Assembly: GCF_002024165.1 (NCBI RefSeq) | Contig: NZ_MWQN01000004.1 | Location: 372,001 to 436,000 of the forward strand | Reading direction: 5' to 3' | Source of the DNA: Embleya scabrispora | GTDB lineage: Bacteria > Actinomycetota > Actinomycetes > Streptomycetales > Streptomycetaceae | Length of the DNA: 64,000 bases | Shown here: piece after piece, positions 1-45,230 of the stretch | Numbering within the stretch: the stretch's first letter is position 1 | How the letters are laid out: every line of letters starts with the position of its first letter | Made by a program: the position numbers and the translations under genes | The notes under the pieces: generated by a model | Seen by the model: the letters and a program-made list of their open reading frames with translations, nothing else | What the model was told of the DNA's origin: nothing | The model's database searches: none

Positions 1-3000
1 CAGCAGGGAGCCCTGTCGGCGGTGCAGGTCGGTCAGGATGTCGCGCAGCGTACGGCCGGGGGCGCAGTCGACGCGCACCGGTAGCGTGTTGATGAACAGG
101 CCCACCATCGAGTCGATCTCGGGGAGTTCGGGCGGGCGTCCGGAGACGGTGCTACCGAAGACCACGTCCTGGCGGCCGGTCAGCCCGGCCAGGAGTACCG
201 CCCAGGACCCCTGCAGCAGTGTGCCGGCGGTGACCCCCAGTGCGGCCGCGGTCCGGGCGAGGTCACGTGCCGCCCGCGGCGGCACGGGCACCTCGATCAG
301 CCCGATCCCCGCACTGTGCCCGTCCGCGGGCGCGTCGGGGACCAGCAGGGTCGGCTCTTCGATCCCGGCCAGTTCCCCGGCCCAGGCGTCGGCCGCCGCG
401 CGCCGATCCCGCCGCGCGAGCCAGGACAGGAAGTCGCGGTAGCCGCGCACCGGGGGCAGCGCCGTACCGTCGCCCGCTGCCGCGTACAGAAGCGGCAGTT
501 CCTTCATCAGCAGTGGCACGGACCAGCCGTCGAACAGTATGTGATGGGCCGTCAGGACCAGTTCCCAGCGGTCCGCCGCCACCTTGACCAGGGAGAGCCG
601 CAGCAGTGGTGGCACCGCCGGATCGAAGTACGCGGCGTGGTCGGCGGCCAGGAACCGCTTCAGCTCCTCGTCCCGGTGCGGTGCCTCCAGCGTGCTCAAG
701 TCCAGGTGGCACCAGGGAAGTTCCACCTTTCGCGGCACTACTTGGCGCCACTCCCCCGACCTGTTCGCGGGGTACGCCGCGCCGAGGTTGGGATGCCTGT
801 CGAGCAGGGCCTGCCCGGCCGCGCGCATGCGCTCCGGCTCCACCTCGCCGGACAGGTGGAAAATGAGCTGCATGTGGTATGCGTCGACGGACGCGCTGCC
901 GGTGAGCATGGTGTGGAACAGCAGACCGGACTGCATCGGGGTCAACGGCCAGACGTCGAGCAGCCCTCCGTATCGCGCCTGCCAGCCGTCCAGTTCGGCC
1001 TGGTCGATGTCCACGAGAGCGGTGTCGGACGGGGTCGGCCCGCCCGCGTCGGGGCGGCTGCCGTGGTCGGCGAGTGCTTCCAGCGCCGTGCGCCACAGGT
1101 CCGTCACGTTTTGTACGTCACGGTGGGACAGCAGGTTCTCGGGGTAGCCGATCCTGGCTTCGAGGCGGGGGCCCTCGGGGAATTCGTCGACGTACGCGGT
1201 GATGTGCAACGAGGCGGGCGCGGGCAGGTCCGGCGCGGGCCCGGGGACGAGGCCCGTGGTGCCCGCGCTCGGTGTGAAGCCGAGGCCGTCGAGATCGTCG
1301 GACGTGTCCCCGACCGCGGCGGGCCGGCCCACGTAGGTGAAGGCGATCTGCCCGGTGGGGTGCGGGCGCAGGACTTCGCCGGTCTCGGGGTTGAGGTGGC
1401 GCAGCAGCCCGTATCCGATGCCGTTGTCCGGGATGCCCGCGAGCTGTTCCTTGACGGCCTTGACGGCGGCTCCGGCGGCCGCCCCGCCGGCGAGCGCTTC
1501 GTCCAGGTCGACCCCGCCCACGTCGAGGCGGACGGGGAACACGCTGGTGAGCCGGCCCACGGTGCGGGACAGGTCGGCGCCCGGCACGATCGCCTCCTCC
1601 CGGCCGTGGCCCTCGACCCGCACCAGGAGCGAGGTCTCGGCGATGCCCCGCCGCTTCCGCCACCGAGCCAGCGCCAGCGCGAGCGCGGTGAGCAGGCCGA
1701 CGTCGACACCGCCGCGGAACGCGGTGGGCAGGGTGGTGAGCAGCGTCCGGGTGAGGGGTGCGGGCAGGTCCAGGTGTACGTACCGGACCGTGGACGTCAC
1801 GTCGAGGGCCGGGTCGAAGGGGCGCGGGCCAAGGTCGGGGTCGGGTCCGGTGACCACGCGTCGCCACAGGGCGAGTTCGCCGGTGCGTCGGGGCGAAGTC
1901 GCCTCCTCGGCGAGGGCGTGCGCCCACCGACGTACCGAGGTGGCGATCTCGGCGAGGCGCGGAGTGCGGCCGTCGCGGACCTGCCGCCAGGCGGCGGCCA
2001 GATCCGGGAGCAGGATGCGCCGGGAGACGTCGTCGACGACGAGGTGGTGCAGGACGATGCTCAGCCTGCCGGCGATCGTCGGGCCCGCGTCGAACCACAC
2101 GAACCGGATCATCACCCCGGCGGCCGGGGCCAACCCGTCGACAGCGTCGTCCAGTTCCCCGCGCGCCCGGTCGAACCAACCCTCGCCCCAAGCGCCGTCG
2201 ACGGGGACCCGGCGGATGAGCCCCGCCACATCGACGGCGCCGGGCGGGGCCATGTCGAGCCCCGTCGCCTCTTCGCCGTTCACCAGGGTCGAGCGCAGGA
2301 CGTCGTGCCGGTCGACGACCGCGGCCAGCGTCGCGACCAGACCGGCCTCGTCGATGCCGACGGGCAGATCGACGGTCGTCGTCATGGCGAACCGGTCGTC
2401 GCCGCCGCCCGCTTGCAGCACGTGGTGGGCCGCCGGGAGCAGCGGTGCGAAGCCGACACCTCCACCCGTCAACTCGGCGAGCACCGGCGTGTGCCGCACG
2501 TCGCCGGCCGCCTCGGCGAGTTCGGCCACGGTGCGGCATTCGAAGATCTGCCTGGGGGTGATCTCGATGCCCTGCGCCTTGGCTCGCGAGACGACCTGGA
2601 TCGAGCGGATGCTGTCGCCGCCGACGGCGAAGAAGTCGTCTTCGACGCCGACCCGTTCCAGCCCGAGTACGTCCGCGTACACCGCGGCGAGCACCTCCTC
2701 GACGGGATTGCCCGGCGCGCGGTAGGCGCCGACGGTGAACTCGGGCTCGGGCAGGGCCTTGTGGTCCAGCTTGCCGTTCGGGGTCAGCGGGACCCGGTCG
2801 ATCAGCACGAACTCCGACGGCACCATGAACTCGGGCAGCCTGGCGGCCACGAATCGGCGCAGCTCTCGCGGCGACACGGTCCCCACCAGGTCCACGTCCA
2901 GCTCGCCGAGGCCGGCCCCGCCGCCGAGGCCGGACGAGCCGGCGTCGGCACCGGCGCCGACGGGCACCGCGTAGCCCACCAGTTGCCGCTCACCGCTACG

Positions 3001-5643
3001 GTTGGCGCCGACGACGACCACGGCCTGTGCGACGCCCGGGTGTGCGGTCAGGGCGGCCTCGACCTCGCCGGGCTCGACGCGGATGCCGCGGATCTTGACC
3101 TGGGCGTCGGTGCGGCCCAGGTACTCCAGTCGACCGTCGGCGTTCCGGCGGGCAAGGTCGCCGGTACGGTACATGCGCCCACCGGGCGGCCCGTAGGGAT
3201 CGGGTACGAAGCGCTCGGCGGTCGATCCGGGACGGTCGCGGTAACCGCGCGCGACGTTGCCCGCCACGTACAACTCGCCCGGAAAGCCGGGCGGTACGGG
3301 CGCCAGTCCGGGGCCGAGCACATAGGCGCGCATGTTGCCCAGCGGCACACCGATCGGAACGGTCACCGCTTCGGGCCGCTCCTCGCCGACGGTGTGGGTG
3401 GTGGCGTAGAAGGACTCGGTCTGGCCGTACGCGTTGACCACACGCACGCCGGGAATCGCCTCGCGTACGCGCCGTACGAGCGCGGCGGGCAGCGCCTCAC
3501 CCGCCAAAACGACGGCGTCGGCCTGCAGACCGTCGCCGCACCGGTCCAGCAGCGCGGCCATGACGGACGGAACCGTGCTGATCACACCGCCTTTCCAGCC
3601 GCCGCGCTCGGCGATCGTCGGCACGTCCGGGACGACCTCGACCGTGCCTCCGGCGGCCAGGGTGGTGATCACCTCGAATACGGAGACGTCGAAGCCGATG
3701 GAGGTTCCCGCGAGCATACGGGTGCCCGCGTCGATGCCGATCGCGTCCTTCAGGCGCAGCACGCCGTTGACGATGTCGCGGTGGGTGAGGGTCACACCCT
3801 TGGGCGTACCGGTGGAGCCGGACGTGTACATCACGTACGCGGCGTTCGCGGGCCGTACCGGCGCCGGCTCCGGGCCCGGGGCCGCGCTCGTGAAGTCGAC
3901 GTCCTCGAACAGCAGATGCGGGGTCCCGGTCCTCGGGAGGGCGCGAGCCGTGTCCGCGTCGGTGAGCACGAGCGCGGGCCGCGCGTCGGCCAGGATCAGG
4001 TCCAGGCGCGCGCCGGGGTACCCGGGGTCGATCGGCAGATAGGCGGCACCTGACTCGAGCACGGCCAGCATGCCCACGACCAGTTCGACCGAGCGTGGCA
4101 GCGCCAGCCCCACCAGGGTCTCCGGGCCGATGCCCCGGCCGGTCAGCTCCCGGGCGAGGCGGTGTGACCGCACCGCCAACTCGGCGTAGGTCACTCGACG
4201 ATCCCCGAAGACCACCGCGACCGCGTCCGGATCCGCCGCCGTCCGGGCCCACAGTCGCGGAACGGTCACGTCGGGCAGCTCGACCGCCGTGTCGTCGGCG
4301 ATGCCCGGCACCTGCTCTCGCGCACCCGGCCCCAGCAGGTCCAACGAGCCGATCGCGGCGTGCGGGTTGCGTGCCGTGCCGCTGATGCAGGCCACCAGGG
4401 TGTCGGCGAATCGACGCACGTCGTCCGCGCTGTACAAGGTGCTGTTGGCGTCCACCCGGATGTGCAGGCCGCTCCTGGCGTGGCCGTCGTAGTAGATGGC
4501 GAGGTGCAGGTCGTCGAAGGCGCCCCAGGAGAAACCGGATTGCCCGTACGCGGTCGCACCGGCGTAGTCGACCTCCGGGGTGACGAAGGGCAGGATGCTG
4601 AGGGTGACTCCGAAGGGACTGGCGACCGACCCCACGTCGGCTCTCCCGGCTCCGGAACGGATGTCGGAGACCTGGTGAGCGGAGTGCCGCCCGATCTGCC
4701 ACAGCTCGCCGGAGATCGTGTGCGCGAAGTCCGGGAATCGTGTGGCCAACGGGGCGTGCACGCGGAAGGGCAGAGTGGTCGACTGCGAGCCGTAGAAGTC
4801 CCTCGCGGCCTTCGTGCGGCCGAGGGCCATCATCGAGAAGGTGAAGTCTTGGCGCCCGCCCACGTGCCGGAAGAAGACGGCGGCGGCGGCGGTCAGGAAG
4901 GCGGGCATCCGCGCGCCGATGGAGGCGGCGGCGTCGAACCACGCGTCCGTATCCCGGGTCGGCACCGCCAGTGTGTGGTGCAGCACCGTGGGGCGGCCGG
5001 CGCTGCGTTGTCCCGGCAGCCGTAGCGGTTCGGGTGCCTCGTCCAGACGCGTTCGCCAGAATTCGGCGTCCTTGGCGAACTGCGGAGAGTTCCGGTAGCG
5101 GAGGTCTTCCAGGCGGATCAGCTCCGGCCCGCCGTGGGAGCGCTCCGGTATCGGCGTGTCGTGCTTCAGGGCCCGGTAGCACTCCGCGATGCGGAGCGGC
5201 AGGAGTCGGGTCAGCGTGTAGCCGTCGGCGACGGTGTGGTGGGCGGCGAGGAACACCAGGTGGCGCGACTTCGACACGCGGGCGATCCCGGCCCGGAACA
5301 GGAGGTCGTGTTCCAGATCGAACGGCTCTCGCTCGATGGCCTCGGCCCATGCGTGGGCCGCCGATTCGGGGTCGGCGGCGGCGCTCGCGTCGTGGAAGGA
5401 GGGCGTCCAGGTGTCCGTGTCGCCCTCGCGGAGCACTTGCCGCAGCTCGTCTCCGAACCGGCGGAAGTTCACCCGTGCGGCGCTGTACTCGTGGAAGACG
5501 ACGCGCAGCGCGGCGCGCAGCAGATCCAGGTCGACATCGCCTGCGACGATCCATCTGCACGCGGGGATGTTCGGCACATCCGGCGTGATCTTCTGAGCCA
5601 GCCACAGGCTCTCCTGCGCTTGTGAAACGCCAATGGAACGCAC
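1..5643 (-). CDS. Non-ribosomal peptide synthetase, C-A-T-E-C (3' end beyond window)
   Basis: Multimodular peptide synthetase; 1,881 codons are visible from a GTG at 5643 (GAGGGAG upstream), open to the window edge. Domains in order: condensation (HHTVADG near residue 135), adenylation (about 465-960, with [11 protein letters not shown] near 605, NAYGQTES and PNGKLD), carrier protein (GGDSI, phosphopantetheine Ser near 1011), epimerization ([13 protein letters not shown] near 1199, later FTYVGRP), and a second condensation domain ([19 protein letters not shown] near 1700). The A-T-E order means the first residue is activated as L and epimerized to D; the second C domain is then expected to be of the DCL type. 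My hand-aligned specificity residues read about D-V-F-S-V-A-A-Y-A-K. This shares a pattern with Phe-type codes (D-A-W-T-V/I-A-A), but the alignment is manual. It is divergent from the 6014-10294 operon, which probably supplies a monomer. The start with a C domain means it either receives an upstream chain or is a starter (acylating) C domain. Confidence 0.93.
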
Positions 5644-6013
5644 CGGATTCGGCTCCCTCGTAAAGACGCGTCGGGATGATTCCCCGAATTCGGAATCCCC
5701 CGTTCCGGAACTCGGCTCCACCGACCGGCCGATGGCCCCTGGGAACATGATGCGAGAAAGCGAATTCGACGCAACTCGGCGCGCGTCGCAAGTACGGCTT
5801 TCACCGTGGAATCTTTTGTCCTGTCGACGGGACCGGTCCGGGAAAGCGGATGCGATCCGTCCGCATGATGTCCCGCGGCGAAATTGCCGGTGCGTCCCGA
5901 ACCATTGATTCCCGGGATGGGAGTACCGGATTCTGTCGAGGTGCATACTCCGGCGCCCTTGGTGTCCACCCCGGTCCCGCCAAAGATCCCATTCCATCGA
6001 AAAGGAGGTCGAA
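5644..6013. promoter_or_regulatory. Divergent intergenic region, NRPS / 2-oxo-acid elongation operon
   Basis: 370 bp with no credible gene. It must carry the promoters for both the leftward synthetase and the rightward operon. A near-perfect Shine-Dalgarno sequence, AAAGGAGGT (6001-6009), lies 5 nt before the TTG start of the rightward gene. I could not assign -35/-10 boxes with confidence. The composition is more AT-rich than the flanks around 5750-5830. Confidence 0.5.
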
Positions 6014-7276
6014 TTGAACGGCATGACCGGCCGGAGCGTGTTTCCGAGCCCTGACATCTGGTTCAACTGGAACACCATGGTCGTGGACGCCGCCCCACAC
6101 CCTACGGCGTACTCCGGAACGTTCTTCGACGAAACCCTCCGCGATGGAATCCAGGCACCCCACATCAGGAATCCCGCACCGGCTCAAAAGCGGGCCCTGA
6201 TCGACCACATGGCTCGCGCCGGGGTGCGATCCGCCGACCTGGGTTTCCCCGGGGCCGACCCGGAGGCACTGCGTGAGTGCGTGGCTCTGGCCCGGCACAT
6301 CATCGCTTCCGGACACCCGATCGTCCCGGGCTACGCCGGCCGCACCCACCCCGCGGACATCGCCGCGATCCGTGAGATCGCGGCGCGGGCCGAGACCCCG
6401 GTGGACGCCTACGTCTTCGTCGGCGTGAGCCCCATCCGGCAGTACGTCGAGGACTGGAGCATCGCCGGCATCCAGCGCAACATCGTCGATTCGGCCGCGG
6501 CCTGCCTCGACGACGAGGTCGACTTCGTCCTGGTCCTGGAGGACGCGGTGCGGTGCACCCCGGAGGTCCTCGGACAGGTCTACGACGCCGCGATCGATTC
6601 CGGAGTGAGCCGGCTGACCCTGTGCGACACCGTCGGAGCGGCCCGCCCGGAGGGTACGGCCGCGCTGCTCCACTGGACCTCCCGGTACTTCCGGAACCGG
6701 CGGCAGTCCGTCGACCTGGAATGGCACGGTCACAACGACCGGGGGCTCGCCCTGGCCAACTCCCTGACGGCGCTGGCCCTGGGCTGCGCCCGGGTGCACG
6801 GCACGATCCTGGGAATCGGGGAGCGCGCCGGGAACGCCTCCCTGGACCAGCTCATCGTCAACAGCCATCTCGACGGACACGGAACATACGACCTGAAGGC
6901 GCTCCGACAGTACGGCGAGTACGCGGCGGACGTACTCCACGTGGACATCCCGCAGAACTACCCCGCGCTGGGCCGGGACGTCTTCAAGACCAGCGCCGGG
7001 GTCCACGCCTCCGCGATCCTCAAGGCGCACCGCAAGGGCGACACGCTCGTCAAGGACAGCGTGTACTCCAGCGTCCCGGCCGGCTACCTGGGCCGCGAAC
7101 AGGAAGTGCTGATCGATCGGGCGTCGGGCACCAACAACGTTCGCTACTGGTTGACCGTTCACGGCTACGACAGCACCGACGCGTCCCTGCTCAAGAAGAT
7201 CCTGGACGGCTCCAGGGCTCATCCGGGTCCCCTCACCGACGAACAGATAGGGCGGATCATTGCGACAGCGGAGTGA
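6014..7276 (+). CDS. HphA-like 2-isopropylmalate/homocitrate synthase-family enzyme
   Basis: HMGL-like (DRE-TIM) acyl-transferring aldolase, 420 aa. It condenses acetyl-CoA with a 2-oxo acid as the first step of one-carbon chain extension. The metal and catalytic motif DETLRDG is at residues 39-45, the metal-binding WHGHND at 237-242 (H238 and H240), and a late [10 protein letters not shown] segment is present. There is no C-terminal LeuA regulatory (allosteric) domain, so it is nearer to homocitrate/benzylmalate synthases than to LeuA. The TTG start is chosen because AAGGAGG ends 5 nt upstream; an ATG at 6023 would sit 14 nt away. It overlaps the next gene by 17 bp. With the fused dehydratase and the dehydrogenase that follow, it matches the hphA-hphCD-hphB arrangement known for homophenylalanine. 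The actual 2-oxo acid substrate (phenylpyruvate, 4-hydroxyphenylpyruvate, 2-oxoglutarate or aliphatic) cannot be read from the sequence. Confidence 0.85.
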
Positions 7277-9245
7277 GCCCCGAGACGACGGGTCCAAGGA
7301 GCGCCGGATCCGCCTGCGCGGCAACGTCCTCGTCCTGACCGAGGACACCGACCTGGTGGCCGCCCAGTTGTCGGGGGGTGCGGCGCCCGGCGTCGCCGAA
7401 CTTCTGCGCGCGCCGCTCATGGACAACATCTCCACCGACGAGATCATCCCGGGCTGGTGCTGCTACTGGTACGACGAGAAGCTCGGTGACTACGCCTACC
7501 TGGGGCTGCGGGACGAGAAGGTCGCCGAGGGGGCCCTGAAGTCCCTCGCGCCCCGGATCATCGTCAGCGGCGAGGCGAAGGGCTGCGGCTCCTCCCGGGA
7601 ACACGCCGTCTATGCCGAGAAGTACGCCGGCGTCGAAGTCGTCTTCGCCCGGTCCTTCGAGCGCATCTACGAGCAGAACTGCCGCAACGTCGGCATCGTC
7701 ACCTGCACCGACTTCGACCTGCTGGAGTCGCTCCTCGACGGCGAGGAACTGCCGCTCGCGGCGTTCACCCGACGTGCCAACGGCATCGAGCGCGCCATCG
7801 TCGACCTCGGGGGCCTGTTCGGCTTCAATCGCCAAGGCTCGGGCCTGACCTCCGACTTCGACCCCGCCCGCCCATTGAACATCGTGGAGAAGATCCTGCA
7901 GCGCGCCCTGTCACCGCGCAACCCGCTCCCCGCGAACGCCTCGGTGCGCGTCGGCGAGTCGTACTTCGTCACCACGGACGTCCGGTTCTCGCACGAGTAC
8001 GTCACCCCCATGGCCGCGGGCATGTTCACGCGACAGTTCGGACCGCACGCCCGGCTCGAACAGCCCGACACCTGCTACTTCTTCCAGGACCACCTCTCCC
8101 TGGCCGCCCCGGTCCTGAAGCGCCGGGACAACGGTGACCGGCTCATCGCCCGGGTCGAGGATCTCGGGCTCCGGCAACGGGAGTTCGCGGAACTCGGTGG
8201 TGGACACCTCATCGGCCCCCGCGAGGGGGGCGGCAGCCGGGCGATCTGTCACAACCACATCCTGGAGCACGTCGCCCGCCCGGGGGACGTGATCATCGGT
8301 ACCGACAGTCACACCTGCACGGGCGGCGCCGTCGGCGCCCTGGCCTTCGGGGTCGGCGCCACCGACATCGCCAACGCCTGGTACAACCGCGAGACCCTGG
8401 TGAAGGTGCCGGCCGTCGTCCGCGTCGAACTCGACGGCGCGCTGCGCCCGGGCGTCTGCGCCAAGGACGTCATGCTCGGCCTGCTGGTCCACCCCGGGAT
8501 CGAGGGGAGTCGGACCCTGGGCAAGGTTCTGCTGTTCACCGGCTCCGGCGTGGGGTCGATCAGCGTGGACGAACGCGCCACCCTGTGCAACATGGCGGTG
8601 GAGGCGGGGGGCATGACCGCGTTGTTCGAAGCCGACGACGTCACTCACGCCCACCTGGCCCGCCGCACTCCGCCGGCTCCCGTCGGCGCCGTACCGACCT
8701 CGGACCCCGGTGCGCGGTACGACTCCACCGTCACCGTGGACCTGGGCTCGGTCCAACCCATGGTGGCCCTGCCGGGAAACCCGCGCAACGCCGTCCCGCT
8801 CGCCTCGGTGCGCGAGGACGTCCGCGTCGACAAGGTGTACGGCGGTTCCTGCACCGGCGGCAAGGCCGAGGACATGGACATGTACGCCGCAGTCTTCGAA
8901 CTCGCCCGCGACCAGGGACGATCGGTCCCCGCCGAGGTCCGGGCGTACATCCAGGTCGGCAGCGAGGCAGTGCTCGACCACGCCGCCGAACGCGGCTATC
9001 TGGACCTCTTCGAGCAGGTCGGCGTCACCGTCCTGCCGCCCTCGTGCGGCGCCTGCATCAACGCCGGGCCGGGTGTCTCGGAGCGGCCCGACGAAGTCAC
9101 CGTCAGCGCTCAGAACCGCAACTTCCCCGGCCGGTCCGGACCCGGCCGGGTCTATCTGGCCTCCCCGTACGTGGTCGCGGCGAGCGCCATCGCGGGACGG
9201 CTCAGCTCCGTGGAGGACATGCTCGCCACCGGAGCGCGGACATGA
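7260..9245 (+). CDS. Fused LeuD-LeuC-type hydro-lyase (aconitase family, HphCD-like)
   Basis: 661 aa, with the small swivel domain first and the catalytic [4Fe-4S] domain second. The N-terminal part has MDNISTDEIIPG and GCGSSREHA, as in LeuD. The C-terminal part carries the three cluster-cysteine motifs of the aconitase family: DSHTCTGGAVG, GGSCTGGKAED and PSCGACI. The expected reaction is isomerization of the 2-alkylmalate made by the upstream enzyme through dehydration and rehydration. LeuC and LeuD are normally separate subunits. The small-then-large fusion is the organisation described for HphCD of homophenylalanine synthesis. The TTG start at 7260 overlaps the upstream stop, so translation is probably coupled; the Shine-Dalgarno sequence is weak, so the exact start is not certain. 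Its stop overlaps the ATG of the dehydrogenase (ATGA). Confidence 0.88.
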   Translation: MRQRSEPRDDGSKERRIRLRGNVLVLTEDTDLVAAQLSGGAAPGVAELLRAPLMDNISTDEIIPGWCCYWYDEKLGDYAYLGLRDEKVAEGALKSLAPRIIVSGEAKGCGSSREHAVYAEKYAGVEVVFARSFERIYEQNCRNVGIVTCTDFDLLESLLDGEELPLAAFTRRANGIERAIVDLGGLFGFNRQGSGLTSDFDPARPLNIVEKILQRALSPRNPLPANASVRVGESYFVTTDVRFSHEYVTPMAAGMFTRQFGPHARLEQPDTCYFFQDHLSLAAPVLKRRDNGDRLIARVEDLGLRQREFAELGGGHLIGPREGGGSRAICHNHILEHVARPGDVIIGTDSHTCTGGAVGALAFGVGATDIANAWYNRETLVKVPAVVRVELDGALRPGVCAKDVMLGLLVHPGIEGSRTLGKVLLFTGSGVGSISVDERATLCNMAVEAGGMTALFEADDVTHAHLARRTPPAPVGAVPTSDPGARYDSTVTVDLGSVQPMVALPGNPRNAVPLASVREDVRVDKVYGGSCTGGKAEDMDMYAAVFELARDQGRSVPAEVRAYIQVGSEAVLDHAAERGYLDLFEQVGVTVLPPSCGACINAGPGVSERPDEVTVSAQNRNFPGRSGPGRVYLASPYVVAASAIAGRLSSVEDMLATGART

Positions 9246-10294
9246 GGATCGCCGTGATTCCCGGCGACGGAATCGGCGGCGAAGTCGTCCCGGCCGTCCT
9301 GCCCGCGCTCGAACTCCTCGGCGACCACTTCGGGTTGGGGCTCTCGTACCGAATCTTCGACTGGGGCGCCGAGCGATGGCTGGCCGAGCGGGTCGGCCTG
9401 CCGCCCGACGCGCTCGACCTGCTCGCCTCCGACTACCCCGCCATTCTCCTCGGAGCCCTGGGCGACCCCAGGATCCCCGACATGGCACATGGTCGCGACA
9501 TTTTGCTGGGCCTTCGTCGAGGCCTCGACCTGTACGTCAACTACCGACCCTTCACCCCTCGCGGCGGCGACCGGACAATCGCCCTGTTCCGGGAGAACAC
9601 CCAGGGCCTGTACGCCGGAGTCGGCGGCACCGTCTCACACGGCAGGCACCCGGCCGTGGCCATCGACGAATGCGTATACACCCGGGAGACCGTGGAGAAG
9701 TTTCTGCGCTACTGCCTGCGCACCCTGAGCGAGAGCGGTCGCGAACGGGTCACCCTGGTGCACAAGAGCAACGCCGTCCCCCACACGGGTCGCCTCTGGC
9801 AAGGGGTCTTCCGTGCCGAACTCGCCGGTTTTCCCGGGCTGGTGGGCAGTGAGGAGTACGTCGACTCCTTCTGCTACCACCTGGTGCGCGACCCCTCGCC
9901 CTACGAGGGCATCGTCGCCTCCAATCTCTTCGGCGACATCGTCAGCGACATCGGCGCGGCCCTGATGGGCGGACTCGGGCTGGCCGCCAGTGCGAGCGTG
10001 TGCCCGGAGACCGGCTGCGCCCTGTTCGAGCCGGTACACGGAAGCGCGCCCGACATCGCGGGCCGGGGCATCGCCAATCCGTATGCCGCGGCGACAGCGG
10101 TCGCCCTCATGCTCGACCACCTCGGCCATCCCCGGGCAGCGGCCCCGCTGCGCCGGGCGCTGGCCGCCGCGGCGCGAACCGACTCCGCCACCCCGGACCT
10201 GGGCGGTCACGGCACCACCGGCACCTTCATGGCGGACGTCATGAAACGGCTGGAAAAGGATCTCGCCGACGACAGGCCCGAACCCCGAACCTGA
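9242..10294 (+). CDS. Isopropylmalate/isocitrate dehydrogenase-family enzyme (HphB-like)
   Basis: 350 aa beta-decarboxylating dehydrogenase. It oxidises and decarboxylates the 3-substituted malate to give the 2-oxo acid longer by one CH2. Visible motifs are GDGIGGEV at the N terminus, RENTQGLYAG in the substrate loop, HKSNAV, the metal-binding SNLFGDIVSDIGAALMGG and the dinucleotide-site motif FEPVHGSAPDIAG. The ATG at 9242 overlaps the upstream TGA (ATGA), so this is the third gene of a coupled operon. The substrate loop differs from canonical LeuB, which suits a non-leucine substrate, but the specificity is inferred from context only. A transaminase for the final 2-oxo acid is not in the window. 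Confidence 0.88.
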   Translation: MRIAVIPGDGIGGEVVPAVLPALELLGDHFGLGLSYRIFDWGAERWLAERVGLPPDALDLLASDYPAILLGALGDPRIPDMAHGRDILLGLRRGLDLYVNYRPFTPRGGDRTIALFRENTQGLYAGVGGTVSHGRHPAVAIDECVYTRETVEKFLRYCLRTLSESGRERVTLVHKSNAVPHTGRLWQGVFRAELAGFPGLVGSEEYVDSFCYHLVRDPSPYEGIVASNLFGDIVSDIGAALMGGLGLAASASVCPETGCALFEPVHGSAPDIAGRGIANPYAAATAVALMLDHLGHPRAAAPLRRALAAAARTDSATPDLGGHGTTGTFMADVMKRLEKDLADDRPEPRT

Positions 10295-34138: not shown

Positions 34139-36564
34139 TCATCCGGCCGGTATCCGGTGGCGGTTGGGGCGGAGGGCCATCCACGCGGGGCCGACGGAGG
34201 CGGTGAGGGCGGCCGTGAGGCATGTGGCGATGACGCCGCCGACGAGCGGCCACGGCACGACCAAGGGGACCGAGGCGCCGGCGAGATCGCTCAGCGCCGA
34301 ACGCAGGCTCAGCAGCGACGGCACGGCGACGATCGCGCCGAGCGCCGTGCCGATGGTCACGACGATGGCCGACTCGGCGGCGATGGCGCACAGCGCCTGC
34401 CGGACGGTCGCGCCGGAAAGGCGCAGGACGCGCAGGTCGGGCAGCCGATCGGCGGTGGCCATCATCAGGGTGTTCGCTATCGCGATGGCCGTGTAGCCGA
34501 CGGAGACCACCACGAGCAGCACGGTGAAGATCCACACGAGGCGTTGCTCCTCGGCGTCGGCCGACGAGGCGTAGGCGGCGACGCTCACCTCCTTGCCGCC
34601 CAGCGGCGCCGGCGCGGAATCGGCGCCGGTGCGAAAGACGGCCGCCGTCAGGGCCGAGGGATCATGCGCGCGGACGGTCCCGCGCGGAAACAGGACGTCG
34701 TAGGGCGTCGATCGGTCGGCCAGCACGGCGACCACGCGCATCGTCTCGGTGGCGCCGTCGCGGAAGGTCACCCGCGCGTCGCCGCCCTGTCGCCAGCCCA
34801 GGCGCGCGGCGACGCTTTCGGACACCGCCATCGTGGTGGGGCCGCGCAACTCGGCGAAGGAGCCCTGTCGGGTCTCGACCCGGTCGCCGATGGCGGCGAA
34901 CGCGTCGGTGACCACTCCCGCCGCCTCGACGACCGCGCCCTTGTCGTCGTAGACCGTCGTGGGTGTCAGAGGGGTGCCCGCCACCTCGGCCACCGCGGCG
35001 TCCGTCAGGCCCGGGGTGTCTTCCGGCACGATCACGCGCTCGGCTCGCACCGACGCCGCGCGCCGAGCCTCATAGGACTGCGCGGTGGTCGCGACCATGC
35101 CCGTGATCAGCACCGCGAGGCCGACCGTCGCGAGCACGGGGGCGGCGGTGGCGGCGGTGCGGCGCACGGCCGTGAGCATGCCCTCGCGCACGAGCAACCC
35201 GATCGCCCCGGCGCCTCGCGACAACGGCCACGTCAGCACCCGCACCACGGGAGGCACGACCGCGGGAGCGAGCATGGTCAGCCCGACAATGAGGGCCATC
35301 GGCGGATACAGCCCGAAATCCGCGAGCGCCCGGGGGTCGGCCGTCGCCGTGATCGCCGCCGAGACGACGCCGAGCGCCACGAACAACAGCCCCCCGACGA
35401 CGCGCCCGCGCGACATCGGCCGGTTGTCCACGTCGGCTTCGCGCAGGGCCTCCAAAGGTGCGATCCGCGCGGCGCGACGGGACGCCGACCACACTCCCGC
35501 CATGGCCACGACCATGCCCGACACAAACGCGCCGGCCAGGGGGAGCACGCCGACCTCGACCGTGAAGCCCTCGGGCTCGAACCCGAGATCGACCAGGACG
35601 GCGCCGAGCGTGGGGGAAAGCACTCCACCGAGCCCGGCGCCGAGCCCGGCCGCGAGCGCGGCGACGACGCCCGCCTCCGCGAACAGCGCGCGCCGAACCT
35701 GCCTCGGAGTGGCGCCGATGGTGCGCAGCAGACCGAACTCGCGCCGGCGCCCCGCGACGGAGAGGGCGAACGTGGACGCCACGACGAACACGGTCGTGAA
35801 CGCGGCCAGAGCCGCCATGGCGGACAGCACCTGAAGGCCCACCCACCGGGTGAACGCGGCGTGGCCCGGTTCCAGTTCGGCACGGTCGGAGCCGGTGAGC
35901 ACCCGCCCCTCCGCACCCACCACCGCCCGCACCGCCGCCGGGTCGAGCGTCGCGCCGGCGCCGGCGAGCAGGCCCAACACGCGTACGCTGCCCGCGAGTC
36001 GATCCGCCTGGCCGTCCGTCAGATAGATGCCGGGGCCGTCGACGAGACCCGACACCGTGTAGGTCGCGGGTCCGGACGCGGTGAGCACGGTGACCGTGTC
36101 GCCAGGGCGCGGCCCGAGCCGGCGGTCGAGCACCACCTCGTGGTCGGCGCCGGGTGGCCGCCCCGCGACCGGCGCGCGGGCCGCGAGCGCGGCGCTCGAC
36201 CAACCGTGCCCCAACGGATCGTCGAGGCGGGGATCGTCCGCGGGGCGCCCGCCGATCACCACCTGGGCGTAGAACGAGCGGTCCGTGACGACGCGCCCGA
36301 CTCCGGGCACGGCCGCGAGACGATCCGCGAGCCGCCGCGCCCGTTGCGCCGTCCACGGGGGCCGTCGTCGAACGGAGGCGCCGGCCGCCGGGCCTCGCCG
36401 CTGCGCACGAGCACCGACGCGGCCGCGAACCGCTCCGGGGTCTCGGGGCCCGAGGAGAGCAGCACCACGCCCGTCGTCGCGAGGATCGTCACGCCCAGCC
36501 CGAGGCCCACGAAGGAGCTCAGGAACGAGACCCACCGGGCCCGCATGCCGGCGAGGGTCAGCAC
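34139..36564 (-). CDS. MacB/FtsX-type ABC transporter permease, apparent 1-base frameshift
   Basis: FtsX-like permease with a first membrane helix (MRARWVSFLSSFVGLGLGVTILATTGVVLL), a large extracytoplasmic domain and two FtsX modules (LSAMAALAAFTTVFVVASTFALSVAGRRREFGLLRTIGATPRQVRRALFAEA; IFTVLLVVVSVGYTAIAIANTLMMAT, RLSGATVRQALCAIAAESA). The first about 70 codons (GTG 36564, after GGAGGAG, overlapping the ATPase stop) are in a different frame from the rest. Adding one C to the CCCCC run at about 36356-36360 joins DDGP to WTAQRARRLADRLAAVPG and yields 809 codons, a normal size. It exports an unknown substrate (antibiotic, lipid or lipoprotein) with the 36558 ATPase. Confidence 0.88.
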
Positions 36565-37331
36565 AACTCCTCCAGCCACGCCATGCGCGCCGCGATGATC
36601 TCGGCGCAGACGCCGGCCCCGTCCGCGCCGCGATGGATCTCGTCGGCCACGCGGCCGTCGGTGAGCAGCACCACTCGATCCGCGAAGGCCGCGGCGGTCG
36701 GGTCGTGCGTGACCATCACCACCGTCTGGCCGCGCGCGTCGACGACGTCGCGCAGCAGGCGCAGGACGTCGCGCGATGCCTTCGAGTCGAGCGCGCCGGT
36801 CGGCTCGTCGGCGAACACCACCGCGGGCCGGGTGATCAACGCGCGGGCGATGGCGACGCGTTGTCGCTGCCCGCCGGACAACTCGGCCGGTCGATGGCGG
36901 GCCCGATCCGCGAGCCCCACCTCGGCCAGGGCCGCCGCGACGTGCGCCGGGTCCGGACGGCGCCCGGCGAGGCGCAGCGGCAGGGCGACGTTCTGCTCGG
37001 CGGTGAGCGCGGAGACCAGATTGAAGGACTGGAAGACGAAGCCGACGCGGGAGCGGCGAAACAGCGTCGACCCGTGCTCGTCGAGGGCGCGGACGTCGAC
37101 GCCGTCGACCCGGATCTCGCCGCCGTCGGCGCGGTCGATGCCGGCCGCGCATTGCAACAACGTGGACTTGCCCGAGCCGGAGGCGCCCATCACCGCCGTC
37201 AGCGTGCCGCGCGGGAAGTCGAGGGTGACGCCGTCGAGCGCGGTGACCCGCTGGGCTCCCGCGTGGTGCGTCTTCGTCACGCGGAGCAGGCGCACGGCCG
37301 GGCCCGCCGGTGTGGATGTCGCTGTGGTCAT
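36558..37331 (-). CDS. MacB/LolD-type ABC transporter ATP-binding protein
   Basis: 257 aa. Walker A GASGSGKSTLL, Q-loop FVFQSFNLV, signature LSGGQRQRVAIARAL, Walker B VVFADEP, D-loop TGALDSK and H-loop MVTHDPTAAAF. Partner of the FtsX permease: its stop overlaps the permease GTG (GTGCTGA). ATG at 37331 after CTGGAGGGC; an upstream in-frame ATG at 37367 is less likely. Divergent from the 37441 kinase, with a symmetrical operator in between. Confidence 0.94.
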   Translation of the reverse strand: MTTATSTPAGPAVRLLRVTKTHHAGAQRVTALDGVTLDFPRGTLTAVMGASGSGKSTLLQCAAGIDRADGGEIRVDGVDVRALDEHGSTLFRRSRVGFVFQSFNLVSALTAEQNVALPLRLAGRRPDPAHVAAALAEVGLADRARHRPAELSGGQRQRVAIARALITRPAVVFADEPTGALDSKASRDVLRLLRDVVDARGQTVVMVTHDPTAAAFADRVVLLTDGRVADEIHRGADGAGVCAEIIAARMAWLEELC

Positions 37332-37369
37332 GCCCTCCAGGAAACCGTCGGCGAACGCCCGGCACATTG

Positions 37370-37402
37370 GTGCCAGGGCGAGAGCGGGACTAGCCCTGGC
37401 AC
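37370..37402. promoter_or_regulatory. Inverted-repeat operator between ABC exporter and two-component genes
   Basis: GTGCCAGGGC (37370-37379) and GCCCTGGCAC (37393-37402), perfect 10-bp arms with a 13-bp spacer, centred in the 109-bp gap between divergent transcription units. A likely binding site for the response regulator encoded at 38643. Confidence 0.65.
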
Positions 37403-37440
37403 TACCGACGCGGCCGTCGCGCGCCGGTTAACGTCGTCGC

Positions 37441-38661
37441 ATGTTCGCGCAAGCCTCGTGGGACTCGATCGGTCGGCGACCGGTGCGTTTCCTGTCGTCT
37501 CCGGCGCCATGGCGGGCCCTGTCCTATCTCGGGGCGAGTTGGGTCGTCGGGGCGGTCGTGGTGGTGACCGTGACGTCGGTCGTGGCCGTCGGCGTCGCGA
37601 CGTGGGAGACGTCGGTCGGCCCGGCGTTCACCGCGTCGCTCGGGCTCGTGGCGCTCGCGTGCATGGCGATCGCCGCCGCGCCGTTCGAGCGGTGGCGGCT
37701 GCGGCTCATCGGCGCTCCCCTCGCGGCGCCGGAGCGGTCGGGCGGTGTGCGGGCGCGGCTGCGCGAGCCCGCCGGTCGGCGCGAGTTCGGCTACGCGCTG
37801 GTCTCGTTGCTGGCGCTGTGGTGGGTGGACCTGGGCATCGCGTCGGTGGCGTTGGTGATCCCGGGGCTGTTGATCTCGGCGCCGTTGCAGCCCACGGCGC
37901 CGCTGTGGATGGCGGTGGTGCTGCCGTTGGTGGGGGTCGTGCTGCTGCCCGTGGCGCTGTTCCTGATCGCGGCATGGGCGGGCGTGCGGGCGACGATGAC
38001 GCGCGCCGTGCTCTCGCCTCGCGAGGCGGAGTTGATCGAGGTGGTCCGCTCCAGGGCGCGTCTGGTCGACGCGTTCGAAACGGAGCGCCGGCGGATCGAG
38101 CGCGATCTGCACGACGGCGCGCAGCAACGCCTGGTCGCGTTGAGCATGAAGCTGGGCCTGGCCTCGCTCGACCTGCCGCCCGGGTCGCCCGCCGCCCGTC
38201 AGGTCCGCGAGGCACACGAGATGGCTCGGGCCGCGCTGTCCGACCTGCGTGAGCTGATTCGCGGTGTGCACCCCCACGTGCTCACCGAACGGGGACTGCC
38301 GGCCGCCGTCCGCGACATCGCGGGGCGCTCGCCGATCCCGGTCGACGTCGATGTCGAACTGGCCGGGCGGTTGCCCACGGCGGTGGAGGTGACCGCCTAT
38401 TTCGTGGTGTGCGAGGCGTTGACGAACGTGGCCAAGCACAGCGGCGCGCAGCGGTGTGCGGTCCGCGGGCGGGTGGCCGACGGGCTGCTGGCGTTGGAGG
38501 TGCGCGACGGCGGTGCGGGCGGCGCCGACCCGGAGGCGGGCACCGGGCTGACGGGTCTGGTCGATCGACTCGCGGTTCTCGACGGCAGAATGTTGTTGTC
38601 CAGCCCGATCGGTGGCCCGACCCTGTTGCGAGTGGAGATCCCGTGTCCGGCCTCAGAGTAG
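37441..38661 (+). CDS. Sensor histidine kinase (HisKA_3 type)
   Basis: 406 aa. Four membrane helices (ALSYLGASWVVGAVVVVTVTSVVAVGV, TASLGLVALACMAIAAAPF, YALVSLLALWWVDLGIASVALVIPGLLI, WMAVVLPLVGVVLLPVALFLIAAW). Then a phosphoacceptor segment, ETERRRIERDLHDGAQQRLVALSMKLGL, and a HATPase with VVCEALTNVAKHSGAQ and GTGLTGLVDRL. Overlaps the response-regulator start by 19 bp. It probably senses an agent exported by the divergent ABC system. Confidence 0.94.
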   Translation: MFAQASWDSIGRRPVRFLSSPAPWRALSYLGASWVVGAVVVVTVTSVVAVGVATWETSVGPAFTASLGLVALACMAIAAAPFERWRLRLIGAPLAAPERSGGVRARLREPAGRREFGYALVSLLALWWVDLGIASVALVIPGLLISAPLQPTAPLWMAVVLPLVGVVLLPVALFLIAAWAGVRATMTRAVLSPREAELIEVVRSRARLVDAFETERRRIERDLHDGAQQRLVALSMKLGLASLDLPPGSPAARQVREAHEMARAALSDLRELIRGVHPHVLTERGLPAAVRDIAGRSPIPVDVDVELAGRLPTAVEVTAYFVVCEALTNVAKHSGAQRCAVRGRVADGLLALEVRDGGAGGADPEAGTGLTGLVDRLAVLDGRMLLSSPIGGPTLLRVEIPCPASE

Positions 38662-39293
38662 TACTCGCGGAGGACGCCGTGCTGTTGCGCGAGGGGCTGG
38701 TGGGCCTGCTCGAGCGTTTCGGCCACGAAGTGGCCGCCGCGGTGGGCGACGGTCCTTCGCTGATCGCGGCCACGCGGGAGCATCGCCCCGATGTCGTGAT
38801 CGCCGACGTGCGCATGCCGCCCGACTTCACCGACGAAGGGTTGCGCGCCGCGCGCGAACTCCAGGCGGCACTACCGTCGTTGGCCGTCCTGGTGCTCAGC
38901 CAGTATGTCGAGCAGACCTTCGCGGAGGAGCTTTTCGACGCTCGGGGCGCCTCGGGCATGGGATATCTGCTGAAGGAACGCATCGGCGACGTGGAGGAGT
39001 TCGCCGACGCCCTGACCCGCGTCGCCGGGGGCGGAACCGTCGTCGACCCCGAGGTCGTCCGCCAACTCCTGGCGCGCCGGCGCGATCCGCTGCGGCGCCT
39101 GACTCCGCGCGAACGCGAGGTTCTCGCCCACATGGCCGAGGGGCGCTCCAACGCCGCCATCGCGCGTGCGTTGGTGGTGACGGAGGCCGCCGTGGCCAAA
39201 CACATCGCGAGCATCCTGACCAAACTCGACCTCCCGCCGGCCCCCGACGACCACCGCCGAGTCCTGGCCGTCCTGGCCTACCTCCGCGGCTGA
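38643..39293 (+). CDS. LuxR-family response regulator
   Basis: 216 aa from GTG 38643, which overlaps the kinase stop. Receiver: VVLAEDAVLLRE, Asp in VIADVRMP, Ser in VLVLSQYVE, Lys in YLLKERIGD. HTH: RLTPREREVLAHMAEGRSNAAIARALVVTEAAVAKHIASILTKLDL. Cognate regulator of the 37441 kinase and the expected ligand of the 37370-37402 inverted repeat. Confidence 0.93.
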   Translation: MSGLRVVLAEDAVLLREGLVGLLERFGHEVAAAVGDGPSLIAATREHRPDVVIADVRMPPDFTDEGLRAARELQAALPSLAVLVLSQYVEQTFAEELFDARGASGMGYLLKERIGDVEEFADALTRVAGGGTVVDPEVVRQLLARRRDPLRRLTPREREVLAHMAEGRSNAAIARALVVTEAAVAKHIASILTKLDLPPAPDDHRRVLAVLAYLRG

Positions 39294-43584: not shown

Positions 43585-44193
43585 CTACGCGATGGGGAAA
43601 TCGAAATAGGTGTCCGGGTAGGGCTCGTCCGTCAGCGTGTAGTGCCACCACTCGCGGTCGTACGCGCTGAACCCGGCGGCCTCCATAATGGAGCGGAGGT
43701 ATTGCCGGTTGGTCGTTTCGACCCGCGTGATCCCCCGTGCTCCGTGGTGCGAGATCGGGTCCATCAGGTCGTGGTGACCTCCCATGGGAGCCAGGTCGCC
43801 GGTATCGAGGTGATACAGCGTCAGGTCGACGGTACTGCCCCGGCTGTGGCCCGACTTGGCGGCCACATACCCCTTTTCGAACATCTCGGCTCTGTCGATA
43901 TTCGGATAGTGTCGCGGCTTCGTGCGTCCGTCCTCCGCCTGGGTCGACCAGGCCACGAACCGGTCGACGGCCCGCTGTGGGCGATAGCCGTCCCAGAGAA
44001 CCAGGTCGAACCCGACGGACGCGGCCTCCTCCCGCGCTCGTTTCAGGGCCGCGCACAAGGCCCTCGTACCGACGATCCGATTGGCCGGATACCCGTCCAC
44101 GGGCTTGCCGGTGAAGTTGTCCCAGGTGGCGTACTTGGCGTCCCACCGCACCCCGGGGATCAGCTCGTCGACGAAGGCGAAGTCGTCGTTCAT
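43585..44193 (-). CDS. vanX: D-Ala-D-Ala dipeptidase VanX
   Basis: 202 aa zinc dipeptidase that destroys D-Ala-D-Ala so that only D-Ala-D-Lac enters cell-wall precursors. Motifs: zinc ligands in SGHSRGSTVDLTLY (H and D) and EWWHY (E base and H), and LWDGYRPQRAV with the catalytic Arg. Full family length. ATG at 44193 overlaps the vanA stop (ATGA). Last gene of vanH-vanA-vanX, followed by the long palindromic terminator. Confidence 0.97.
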   Translation of the reverse strand: MNDDFAFVDELIPGVRWDAKYATWDNFTGKPVDGYPANRIVGTRALCAALKRAREEAASVGFDLVLWDGYRPQRAVDRFVAWSTQAEDGRTKPRHYPNIDRAEMFEKGYVAAKSGHSRGSTVDLTLYHLDTGDLAPMGGHHDLMDPISHHGARGITRVETTNRQYLRSIMEAAGFSAYDREWWHYTLTDEPYPDTYFDFPIA

Positions 44194-45230
44194 CGATTCT
44201 TTCCTTCGATCGCCAGCGACACCAACCGATCGATCACCTCGGACAACGGGAATCCGGCGGCTGCCATCATGCGCGGATAGCGGCTGTACGAGGTGAGGCC
44301 GGGGAGGGTGTTGACCTCGTTGAGGACCACGCTTCCGGCTGCCGTGAGGAACATGTCCACGCGCGCCAGCCCCCTGCACCCGAGGGCGCGATAGATGGCC
44401 TTGGCCGTCTCCTGGACGCGAGCGCGCGACGTTGCCGGGATATCGGCCGGCACGATCGGTGTCGAATTGTCGGATCCGTTTTCGGGCGTCGCCTCCTGAT
44501 GGATCTTGAAGAATCCGTGCGACAGCGCGATGCGATCCACTTCCCCCGTGATCAATTCCGGGTCGTTGCCCAATATCGCGCACCCGACCTCGCTGCCGAC
44601 GACGGCCTCTTCGATCAGGATCTTCGAGTCGTATCGGCGGGCCGCGGCGATCGCATCGGCCAGTTCTTCCGGCCGGGACACCTTGCCGACCCCGAACGAC
44701 GATCCGGAACGGGCCGGCTTCACGAACGCGGGATAGACGATCCCGTCGGCGTCGACCTTCTCGTCCGCCGTGACGGTGATGAAGTTCGGTGTGTCGATTC
44801 CCGCGCCTGCGGCGACGGCGTAGGCAAGGGATTTGTCCATACACAGCGCGGAGCTTTGGATATCGCAGCCCACATAGGGTATTCCGGAAAGCTCCAGCAG
44901 ACCCTGCGGCGCGCCGTCTTCGCCGAGCTTGCCGTGCAGCACGGGCAACACCACGTCCAGGCGGATCGTCTCGTAGCGACCTGCCTCCAGGACGAGCAGT
45001 CCGTGCACGCCGGGATCCGGTGCCAGTACGACCGGACGGCAATCGCCGTCCTCCCAGTCCGCGTCGGGGCCGTCACACAGTTTCCAACCGCCGCTCTTCG
45101 TGATTCCGATGTAGAAGGGCAGATACTTTTCCGGGTCGAGGTTCTTCGCGACCAGTTGCGCCGATTTGACGGAGATGGGGTGCTCTTCGGAGCTGCCCCC
45201 GAATATGATGCCGATTCTCGTCTCAGTCAC
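44190..45230 (-). CDS. vanA: D-alanine--D-lactate ligase VanA type
   Basis: 346 aa ATP-grasp ligase. IIFGGSSEEHPISVKSA at the N terminus, PAFVKPARSGSSFGVGKV in the ATP site, and NEVNTLPGLTSYSRYPRM at the C terminus. An omega-loop with ISLSHG-like residues (VDRIALSHGFFKIHQE) marks the VanA/B D-Lac ligase subfamily rather than Ddl. It makes the ester that lowers vancomycin affinity. Start overlaps the vanH stop by 8 bp; stop overlaps vanX. Confidence 0.96.
   Translation of the reverse strand: MTETRIGIIFGGSSEEHPISVKSAQLVAKNLDPEKYLPFYIGITKSGGWKLCDGPDADWEDGDCRPVVLAPDPGVHGLLVLEAGRYETIRLDVVLPVLHGKLGEDGAPQGLLELSGIPYVGCDIQSSALCMDKSLAYAVAAGAGIDTPNFITVTADEKVDADGIVYPAFVKPARSGSSFGVGKVSRPEELADAIAAARRYDSKILIEEAVVGSEVGCAILGNDPELITGEVDRIALSHGFFKIHQEATPENGSDNSTPIVPADIPATSRARVQETAKAIYRALGCRGLARVDMFLTAAGSVVLNEVNTLPGLTSYSRYPRMMAAAGFPLSEVIDRLVSLAIEGKNR

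What the first reader, a model, noticed from the sequence alone, without database searches (positions are those of the whole stretch)
1..10294. NRPS divergent from an HphA/HphCD/HphB-like chain-extension operon
The operon encodes a LeuA/homocitrate-synthase-type enzyme without the regulatory domain, a fused small+large aconitase-type dehydratase and a dehydrogenase, translationally coupled. This is the layout described for homophenylalanine biosynthesis (hphA-hphCD-hphB) in cyanobacteria; in an actinomycete next to an epimerizing NRPS it suggests an unusual extended amino acid in a peptide.
Basis: partly seen in the sequence, partly recalled or inferred. Interest (0 to 1): 0.85.

Follow-up and report, generated by a model that had tools for sequence, protein, structure and literature searches.

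The report
Amino-acid-lengthening operon beside peptide synthetase
A Streptomyces-family bacterium carries a three-gene cassette that probably lengthens an amino acid's side chain by one carbon for a small peptide product; it looks like the cyanobacterial homophenylalanine pathway but seems to have evolved separately, and which amino acid it lengthens is not yet shown.

Summary
In detail: an NRPS (minus strand, running off the left edge) is divergent from a coupled synthase / fused small+large aconitase / dehydrogenase operon (6014-10294). Left of the window the NRPS continues as C-A-PCP-E / C-A-MT-PCP / C-A-PCP-TE, interrupted by two frameshifts. A1 has the piperazate code DVFSVAAYAK, A3 a Thr-type code; A2 (DAYCLGASFK) is unassigned. 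A piperazate-type gene pair lies elsewhere in the genome. The operon is not orthologous to hph: the synthase+HphA and dehydratase+HphCD clades are rejected (AU p 1.6e-5 and 1.9e-66); the dehydrogenase was not tested that way. Synthase pocket residues are A/V/V/T/H, not HphA, homocitrate-synthase or isopropylmalate-synthase type. Ten of 392 sampled genomes of another genus of the family carry the same cassette, each with an aminotransferase in the cluster, inside different kinds of NRPS or NRPS-PKS cluster; in four, a second prephenate dehydratase lies within 4-15 kb. Best reading: an independently assembled alpha-keto-acid homologation cassette feeding A2, with phenylpyruvate to homophenylalanine the leading, unproven substrate. 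Homoleucine-type extension (mycoplanecin precedent) stays open. New variant of a known kind.

The parts
1..5643 (-). NRPS, first part: C - A1 - PCP - E - start of second C; continues left of the window to about -7353 (A2-MT-PCP, C-A3-PCP-TE)
   Evidence: GTG start at 5643 chosen by codon score
2770..4245 (-). A1 domain, code DVFSVAAYAK (identical to HmtL-A1 and Lun22: piperazic acid)
   Evidence: meaning of the code from passages of PMC9866976 and PMC3943440
2509..2694 (-). PCP of module 1
   Evidence: Pfam PF00550
1110..2490 (-). epimerisation domain of module 1 (limits approximate)
   Evidence: EGHGR motif and position after the PCP
5644..6013 (.). divergent intergenic region with AAGGAGGT ribosome-binding site at 6002-6009
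6014..7276 (+). LeuA/homocitrate-synthase-type synthase (420 aa), residues A108/V172/V174/T202/H262 at the published specificity positions
7260..9245 (+). fused small+large aconitase-type dehydratase (661 aa)
9242..10294 (+). isopropylmalate/isocitrate-type dehydrogenase (350 aa) with RENTQGLY motif

Best explanation
The operon is a dedicated amino-acid homologation cassette. The synthase condenses an alpha-keto acid with acetyl-CoA, the fused dehydratase isomerises the 2-substituted malate, the dehydrogenase oxidises and decarboxylates it, giving the alpha-keto acid with one more CH2; an aminotransferase from elsewhere in the genome makes the amino acid. The divergent NRPS uses it at module 2 (A2, with N-methyltransferase) in a tripeptide D-piperazate - N-methyl-X - Thr. 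Most likely X is homophenylalanine made from phenylpyruvate. Shown: gene content, overlaps, catalytic motifs, conservation across the family, non-orthology of synthase and dehydratase with hph. Inferred: the reaction series (about 0.85), use by A2 (about 0.6), aromatic substrate (about 0.5), release by the Cys-type TE.
For: Domain content and catalytic motifs. The same three genes with an aminotransferase in the cluster in 10 of 10 close relatives (8 directly adjacent, G578 one gene away, G194 about 12 kb away); the ten aminotransferases are one family (68-95% identical to that of G086), and G560's is nearest to multiple-substrate and 2-aminoadipate aminotransferases. The synthase lacks the carboxylate-binding His and Arg of homocitrate synthase and has Ala at the position (A73) that governs specificity in HphA (PMC12961565). 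A second prephenate dehydratase, 81-84% identical to the other copy in the same genome, lies 4-15 kb from the operon in G086, G336, G356 and G320, pointing to phenylpyruvate; in the three of these four whose NRPS could be read, module 1 has a Phe code (recalled). The one A domain recognised in four NRPS-PKS proteins has a Phe-like code, DALTVGVVLK. Piperazate (A1) and Thr-type (A3) codes leave A2 as the open slot in the window's NRPS.
Against: The second prephenate dehydratase may simply feed the Phe-coded module, is probably one ancestral event, and is absent from the window's genome and from the closest relative G560 (one copy each). Four of the five specificity positions differ from published HphA. 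The candidate codes differ between window (DAYCLGASFK) and relatives (DALAVGGSLK, DALTVGVVLK). The window's genome has no close aminotransferase orthologue (best 41%). Two frameshifts in the NRPS could mean it is dead. Five of ten relatives carry crotonyl-CoA reductase-type genes in the cluster (40 kb away in G560), a link the aromatic reading does not explain in G560, where no KS or AT motif was found.
Confidence: 0.5

Rival explanations
1. Same cassette chemistry but an aliphatic keto acid is lengthened (homoleucine, homonorleucine or homoisoleucine), as MypK/MypL do for mycoplanecin in an actinomycete.
For: Direct actinomycete precedent reconstituted in vitro (PMC10817943 passages); homoleucine also in ulleungmycin A and noursamycin C (PMC7459860 section 9). 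Pocket residues V/V are hydrophobic. The window's A2 region is most like three G560 A domains with Val-like codes (recalled) (53-58%).
Against: Second prephenate dehydratase in four relatives; Ala at the position where IPMS has Leu suggests a larger side chain, though A73 is also variable among HphA homologues according to the same paper.
Confidence: 0.3
2. The cassette extends an acidic or otherwise polar keto acid (2-oxoglutarate to 2-oxoadipate, or a phosphonopyruvate-like substrate).
For: G560's aminotransferase is near 2-aminoadipate transaminase; the synthase has His where homocitrate synthase has His; the dehydrogenase scores best in the PDB search against tartrate, isocitrate and homoisocitrate dehydrogenases as well as isopropylmalate dehydrogenases.
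Against: The His and Arg positions that bind the distal carboxylate are Ala and Val in all 11 members. NCBIfam homocitrate synthase score is far under cut-off (142 against 463 bits). No phosphonate gene was noticed among the genes called at the locus, but none was searched for.
Confidence: 0.12
3. The operon does not serve the divergent NRPS, or the NRPS is a pseudogene.
For: Two frameshifts in the NRPS; no aminotransferase of the family and no piperazate gene pair beside it in this genome.
Against: In the closest relative G560 the operon is also divergent from an NRPS, with one aldehyde dehydrogenase gene between. Both shifts lie in G/C runs and the domain motifs on either side are intact. 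A piperazate-type gene pair exists in trans.
Confidence: 0.15

Closest known systems
HphA / HphB / HphCD (cyanobacterial homophenylalanine and homotyrosine pathway)
   Same: Same three enzyme types, fused small-then-large dehydratase, NRPS genes nearby; Ala at the synthase's A73 position (A or S in nine hph-type synthases).
   Different: Against hph-type operons found here by synteny: synthase 21-24%, dehydratase 33-38%, dehydrogenase 31-35% identical; joint clades rejected for synthase and dehydratase; different gene order; 4 of 5 specificity residues differ from published HphA; RENTQGLY in 11 of 11 members here, 0 of 11 HphB-type proteins.
MypK / MypL with LeuB and LeuC (mycoplanecin homo-amino acids, actinomycete)
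   Same: Dedicated LeuA-like homologation for an actinomycete NRPS (PMC10817943, passages).
   Different: MypL is a LeuD-transaminase fusion and the pathway borrows LeuB and LeuC from primary metabolism; here dehydratase and dehydrogenase are both in the cassette. No sequence comparison was made.
Fused aconitase-family proteins of Burkholderiales plasmids (Paraburkholderia terrae, Caballeronia, Variovorax)
   Same: Closest outside relatives of the dehydratase among those compared (41-43%, same small-large order).
   Different: Of three loci read, two lie near CoA-transferase genes (one also near HMG-CoA lyase); none shows a LeuA-type synthase or NRPS in the 8-10 kb read.
Piperazate NRPS modules (HmtL-A1, KtzH-A1, Lun22)
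   Same: A1 code identical to HmtL-A1 and Lun22.
   Different: Combined here with a homologation cassette and a three-module synthetase ending in a Cys-type TE (GHCAG).
ObiF beta-lactone-forming TE (GXCXG)
   Same: Cys in the TE nucleophile motif and a beta-hydroxy amino acid (Thr-type code, recalled) in the last module; PMC6668435 passages.
   Different: Only the motif was compared; Cys TEs may do other chemistry, so beta-lactone release is a suggestion only.

Membership tests
HphA | residues A73/D157/A159/M186/S242 as published (PMC12961565 Table 1) | tested here: not met
   Window A/V/V/T/H, same in 10 of 11 members (G194 has C for T). Nine cyanobacterial hph-type synthases keep A or S at 73, A at 159 and S at 242, with K, E or C at 157 and Y, I, V or L at 186; none has exactly the published set. 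Cyanobacterial LeuA gives L/E/S/N/E as in the published table, which checks the column mapping.
HphA | common descent with HphA | tested here: not met
   AU test of one clade p 1.6e-5, 43 rows; the tool warns of long branches; the HphA rows were identified by synteny, the characterised Nostoc HphA was not at hand.
HphCD | fused small-then-large subunits in that order | tested here: met
   20 matches in 234 Nostocales genomes span both domains collinearly, 19 read. Similar fusions occur outside hph, so this is not diagnostic.
HphCD | common descent with HphCD | tested here: not met
   AU p 1.9e-66 on the quick tree; groups with three Burkholderiales proteins, SH-aLRT 100.
HphB | common descent with HphB | tested here: inconclusive
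   Separate branches, SH-aLRT 100 each, but three outgroup rows only and no constraint test.
Hph pathway | turnover of phenylpyruvate to homophenylalanine | not testable with these tools
   needs an enzyme assay
2-isopropylmalate synthase LeuA | L/E/S/N/E pocket, C-terminal regulatory domain, score over NCBIfam cut-off | tested here: not met
   A/V/V/T/H; HMGL-like domain only; 147 bits against a 517 cut-off for the best LeuA model.
homocitrate synthase | His and Arg that bind the distal carboxylate | tested here: not met
   Ala and Val in 11 of 11; 142 bits against 463.
mycoplanecin-type homologation (MypK/MypL) | LeuA-like enzyme plus LeuD-transaminase fusion, aliphatic C6 keto acids | not tested
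   Sequences not at hand; Pfam shows no transaminase domain in the three operon proteins.
piperazate-activating A domain | code DVFSVAAYAK or near | tested here: met
   supported by a PF04299 / PF13434 gene pair at C1:5.764-5.766 Mb.

The most novel reading that the evidence does not exclude
Actinobacteria assembled their own complete homophenylalanine cassette, unrelated by descent to cyanobacterial hph, and pass it as a module among unrelated assembly lines (a piperazate tripeptide, glycosyltransferase-rich NRPS clusters with their own prephenate dehydratase, and NRPS-PKS clusters with crotonyl-CoA reductase); in the window it supplies a D-piperazate - N-methyl-homophenylalanine - Thr peptide that a Cys-type thioesterase may release as a beta-lactone.
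Probability: 0.2. Interest if true: 0.75.

Novelty: new variant of a known kind. Interest (0 to 1): 0.55.

Why it matters
Homo-amino acids are thought to improve the stability of peptide natural products (PMC12961565 introduction), and few dedicated pathways to them are characterised (recalled). A compact, self-contained, non-orthologous cassette in Streptomyces-family genomes would be a second natural solution to the same chemistry, a search handle for new peptides (ten further clusters are listed here), and a source of a synthase whose pocket is unlike HphA, LeuA or homocitrate synthase.

Tried and rejected
Orthology with hph: tested with nine HphA-type synthases, 19 fused dehydratases and 11 dehydrogenases found by synteny in Nostocales genomes; rejected for synthase and dehydratase. 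Homocitrate synthase and LeuA: rejected on residues and scores. The fused dehydratase as a marker of hph: rejected, since similar fusions occur in Burkholderiales plasmids. Published codes for A2 and the relatives' odd A domains: no paper in the library holds DAYCLGASFK, DALAVGGSLK, DALAIGGSLK, DALTVGVVLK or DAMLVGAITK. Literature for an actinomycete homophenylalanine operon: searches (0 papers; 30 of 41 listed; 8; 2; 12 of 88 listed) showed none in the titles and abstract starts listed; the library lacks most subscription journals. The 33-36% relatives were set aside as another subfamily: G175, G334 and G942:C392 have separate dehydratase subunits, and beside G483's synthase no dehydratase was seen. 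Structure prediction was not run: it would not have decided the substrate.
Full report
What is there. The window lies at C4:372001-436000 of an 11-Mb, 8-contig genome. The operon 6014-10294 encodes a 420-aa synthase with an HMGL-like domain only, a 661-aa chain with the small aconitase domain first and the large one second, and a 350-aa isopropylmalate/isocitrate-type dehydrogenase. The genes overlap by 17 and 4 nt. The divergent NRPS starts at about 5643 and shows C-A-PCP-E and the start of a second C inside the window. The left flank shows that it continues to about -7353: C-A2-MT-PCP and C-A3-PCP-TE, with one frameshift inside A2 and one inside A3, both in G/C runs and outside the window. 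Whether these are sequencing errors or real is not settled. The TE carries GHCAG, a Cys nucleophile motif.

What the NRPS makes. The codes are A1 DVFSVAAYAK, A2 DAYCLGASFK (read across the shift), A3 DFWNVGMVHK. The A1 code is identical to HmtL-A1 and to Lun22, reported for piperazic acid (passages of PMC9866976 and PMC3943440). The genome holds a PF04299 (KtzT-type) gene divergent from a PF13434 (N-hydroxylase) gene at C1:5764087-5766431; no A-domain or PCP motif occurs in the 60 kb around them, where the same motif search finds the three A domains of the window's NRPS. NCBIfam names neither above cut-off. A3 is a Thr-type code (recalled). So the first, epimerised residue is probably D-piperazate and the open slot is A2, which carries an N-methyltransferase.

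Relatives. With E at most 1e-50, 4 of 292 other genomes of the order match the synthase: G086, G200 and G194 at 66-70% and G175 at 36%. In 392 sampled genomes of genus g2, another genus of the same family, 13 match at E at most 1e-60: ten at 66-84% and three at 35-36% (the four are among them). In 394 genomes of the class only the window's own matches. The synthase of the G194 cluster is also on plasmid NZ_CP139046.1 of Streptomyces sp. KN37, apparently the same sequence. All ten close relatives have the three genes in the same order and an aminotransferase of one family (68-95% identical to that of G086): directly adjacent in eight, one gene away in G578, about 12 kb away in G194. The window's genome has no such gene nearby and none closer than 41% to G560's anywhere.

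Three contexts. (a) G086, G356, G336, G320: glycosyltransferase, transporter and two-component genes (names by look), NRPS genes, and a second prephenate dehydratase 4-15 kb from the operon. Module 1 reads DAWTVAAVCK or DAWTIAAVCK (Phe type, recalled) and module 2 DALAVGGSLK or DALAIGGSLK in G356, G336 and G320; the G086 NRPS is broken and was not read. Of 11 genomes searched with PF00800, these four and G200 have two copies; neither G200 copy is on its cluster's contig. Within each of the four genomes the two copies are 81-84% identical. (b) G194, G200, G343, G389: one or two crotonyl-CoA carboxylase/reductases, a 555-557 aa acyl-CoA dehydrogenase, a separate thioesterase and a PCP-C-A-PCP-KS-AT-PCP protein; its A code is DALTVGVVLK in all four. 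(c) G560, the closest (84-86%): genes that look like the arginine pathway, a weakly scored N-hydroxylase-type protein, an aldehyde dehydrogenase, a large NRPS with nine A domains read, three of piperazate type or near, and, 40 kb from the operon, a protein 75% identical to a G194 crotonyl-CoA reductase; no KS or AT motif was found in G560, where the same search finds them in G194, G200, G343 and G389. No crotonyl-CoA reductase motif was found in the stretches read of G086, G336, G356, G320, G578 or the window's locus. G578 is cut by its contig end.

Test against hph. Hph-type operons were sought by synteny: of 234 Nostocales genomes, 84 match the dehydratase at E at most 1e-50, and 20 of the listed matches span both domains. 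Nineteen stretches were read: nine show a LeuA-type synthase, 11 a dehydrogenase, and eight all three in the order synthase-dehydrogenase-dehydratase; these eight also have an A-domain match in the stretch, weak in L236. The nine synthases have A or S at position 73, Ala at 159 and Ser at 242, the two positions PMC12961565 reports as best kept, and other residues than the published D157 and M186 (parts 1-4 of 6 read). That they are HphA is inferred from synteny and these residues. The window family is A/V/V/T/H (10 of 11; G194 has Cys for Thr). Cyanobacterial LeuA gives L/E/S/N/E as in the paper's Table 1, which checks the mapping. Synthase tree of 43 rows: window family 100/100, HphA group 100/100, joint clade rejected with p 1.6e-5 (the tool warns of long branches). 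Dehydratase tree of 43 rows (quick): joint clade rejected, p 1.9e-66, nearest outside rows are Burkholderiales fusions at 41-43%. Dehydrogenase tree of 25 rows (quick): separate groups, not tested by constraint.

Mechanism. From established knowledge of the LeuA/LeuCD/LeuB route, the set should add one CH2 to an alpha-keto acid. The catalytic motifs checked are present. The distal-carboxylate His and Arg of homocitrate synthase are replaced by Ala and Val, which argues against 2-oxoglutarate. Ala where IPMS has Leu argues for a side chain larger than valine's. The second prephenate dehydratase in context (a) argues for phenylpyruvate, though it could serve the Phe-coded module and is likely one ancestral event. 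Against this, the candidate codes differ between contexts, the window's own A2 region is most like Val-type A domains of G560 (53-58%), and crotonyl-CoA reductase occurs in five of ten relatives (context b, and G560) without explanation in G560. The actinomycete precedent is mycoplanecin, where MypK/MypL plus LeuB/LeuC make homoleucine (PMC10817943 passages); an aliphatic substrate is therefore a serious rival.

Verdict. A real, conserved homologation cassette, convergent with hph in layout, not a member of it; substrate open. For the literature I saw: PMC12961565 parts 1-4 of 6; PMC7459860 a passage and section 9; passages only of PMC9866976, PMC3943440, PMC6668435, PMC11253843, PMC6562525, PMC10817943 and PMC11085741; Koketsu 2013 was not held.

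Noticed in passing
window 43585-46128 (minus strand), with an unassigned protein at 46389-47453: A vanH / D-Ala-D-Lac ligase / vanX set: VanX and D-Ala-D-Lac ligase models pass their cut-offs, VanH models score 501-505 bits, under theirs (540 or more). GC dips to 0.647 there. Described only.
   Followed up: partly
window 34139-39293: ABC transporter, permease and response-regulator type genes whose relatives (33-62% identity) sit inside the context (a) clusters that share the homologation cassette. Such genes are common, so this may mean nothing.
   Followed up: partly
G000:C1:5764087-5766431 (L114): Piperazate-type gene pair standing alone, with no NRPS motif in the 60 kb fetched, possibly supplying the window's NRPS in trans.
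   Followed up: partly
L021/L022 (G194) and L025 (KN37 plasmid): NRPS-PKS clusters with two crotonyl-CoA reductases and a 557-aa acyl-CoA dehydrogenase beside the cassette; on the KN37 plasmid also annotated DAHP synthase, anthranilate-synthase-family, isochorismatase and fatty acyl-AMP ligase genes. The architecture reminds of epoxyketone clusters (recalled, not tested).
   Followed up: partly
L125, L126, L147, L148 (G560): A piperazate-type NRPS with nine A domains read, arginine-pathway-like genes, an aldehyde dehydrogenase and a crotonyl-CoA reductase-like gene but no PKS motif: the role of the reductase is unexplained.
   Followed up: partly
L172 (G942:C58): A cyanobacterial synthase (35-38%) next to an HphCD-like fused dehydratase, yet outside the HphA group of the synthase tree: possibly another independent homologation pair.
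   Followed up: no
C4:443109-445623 (window coordinate 71109-73623, right of the window): Genes that look like the lower meta-cleavage pathway (4-hydroxy-2-oxovalerate aldolase type and neighbours, by eye), found as a weak synthase hit.
   Followed up: no
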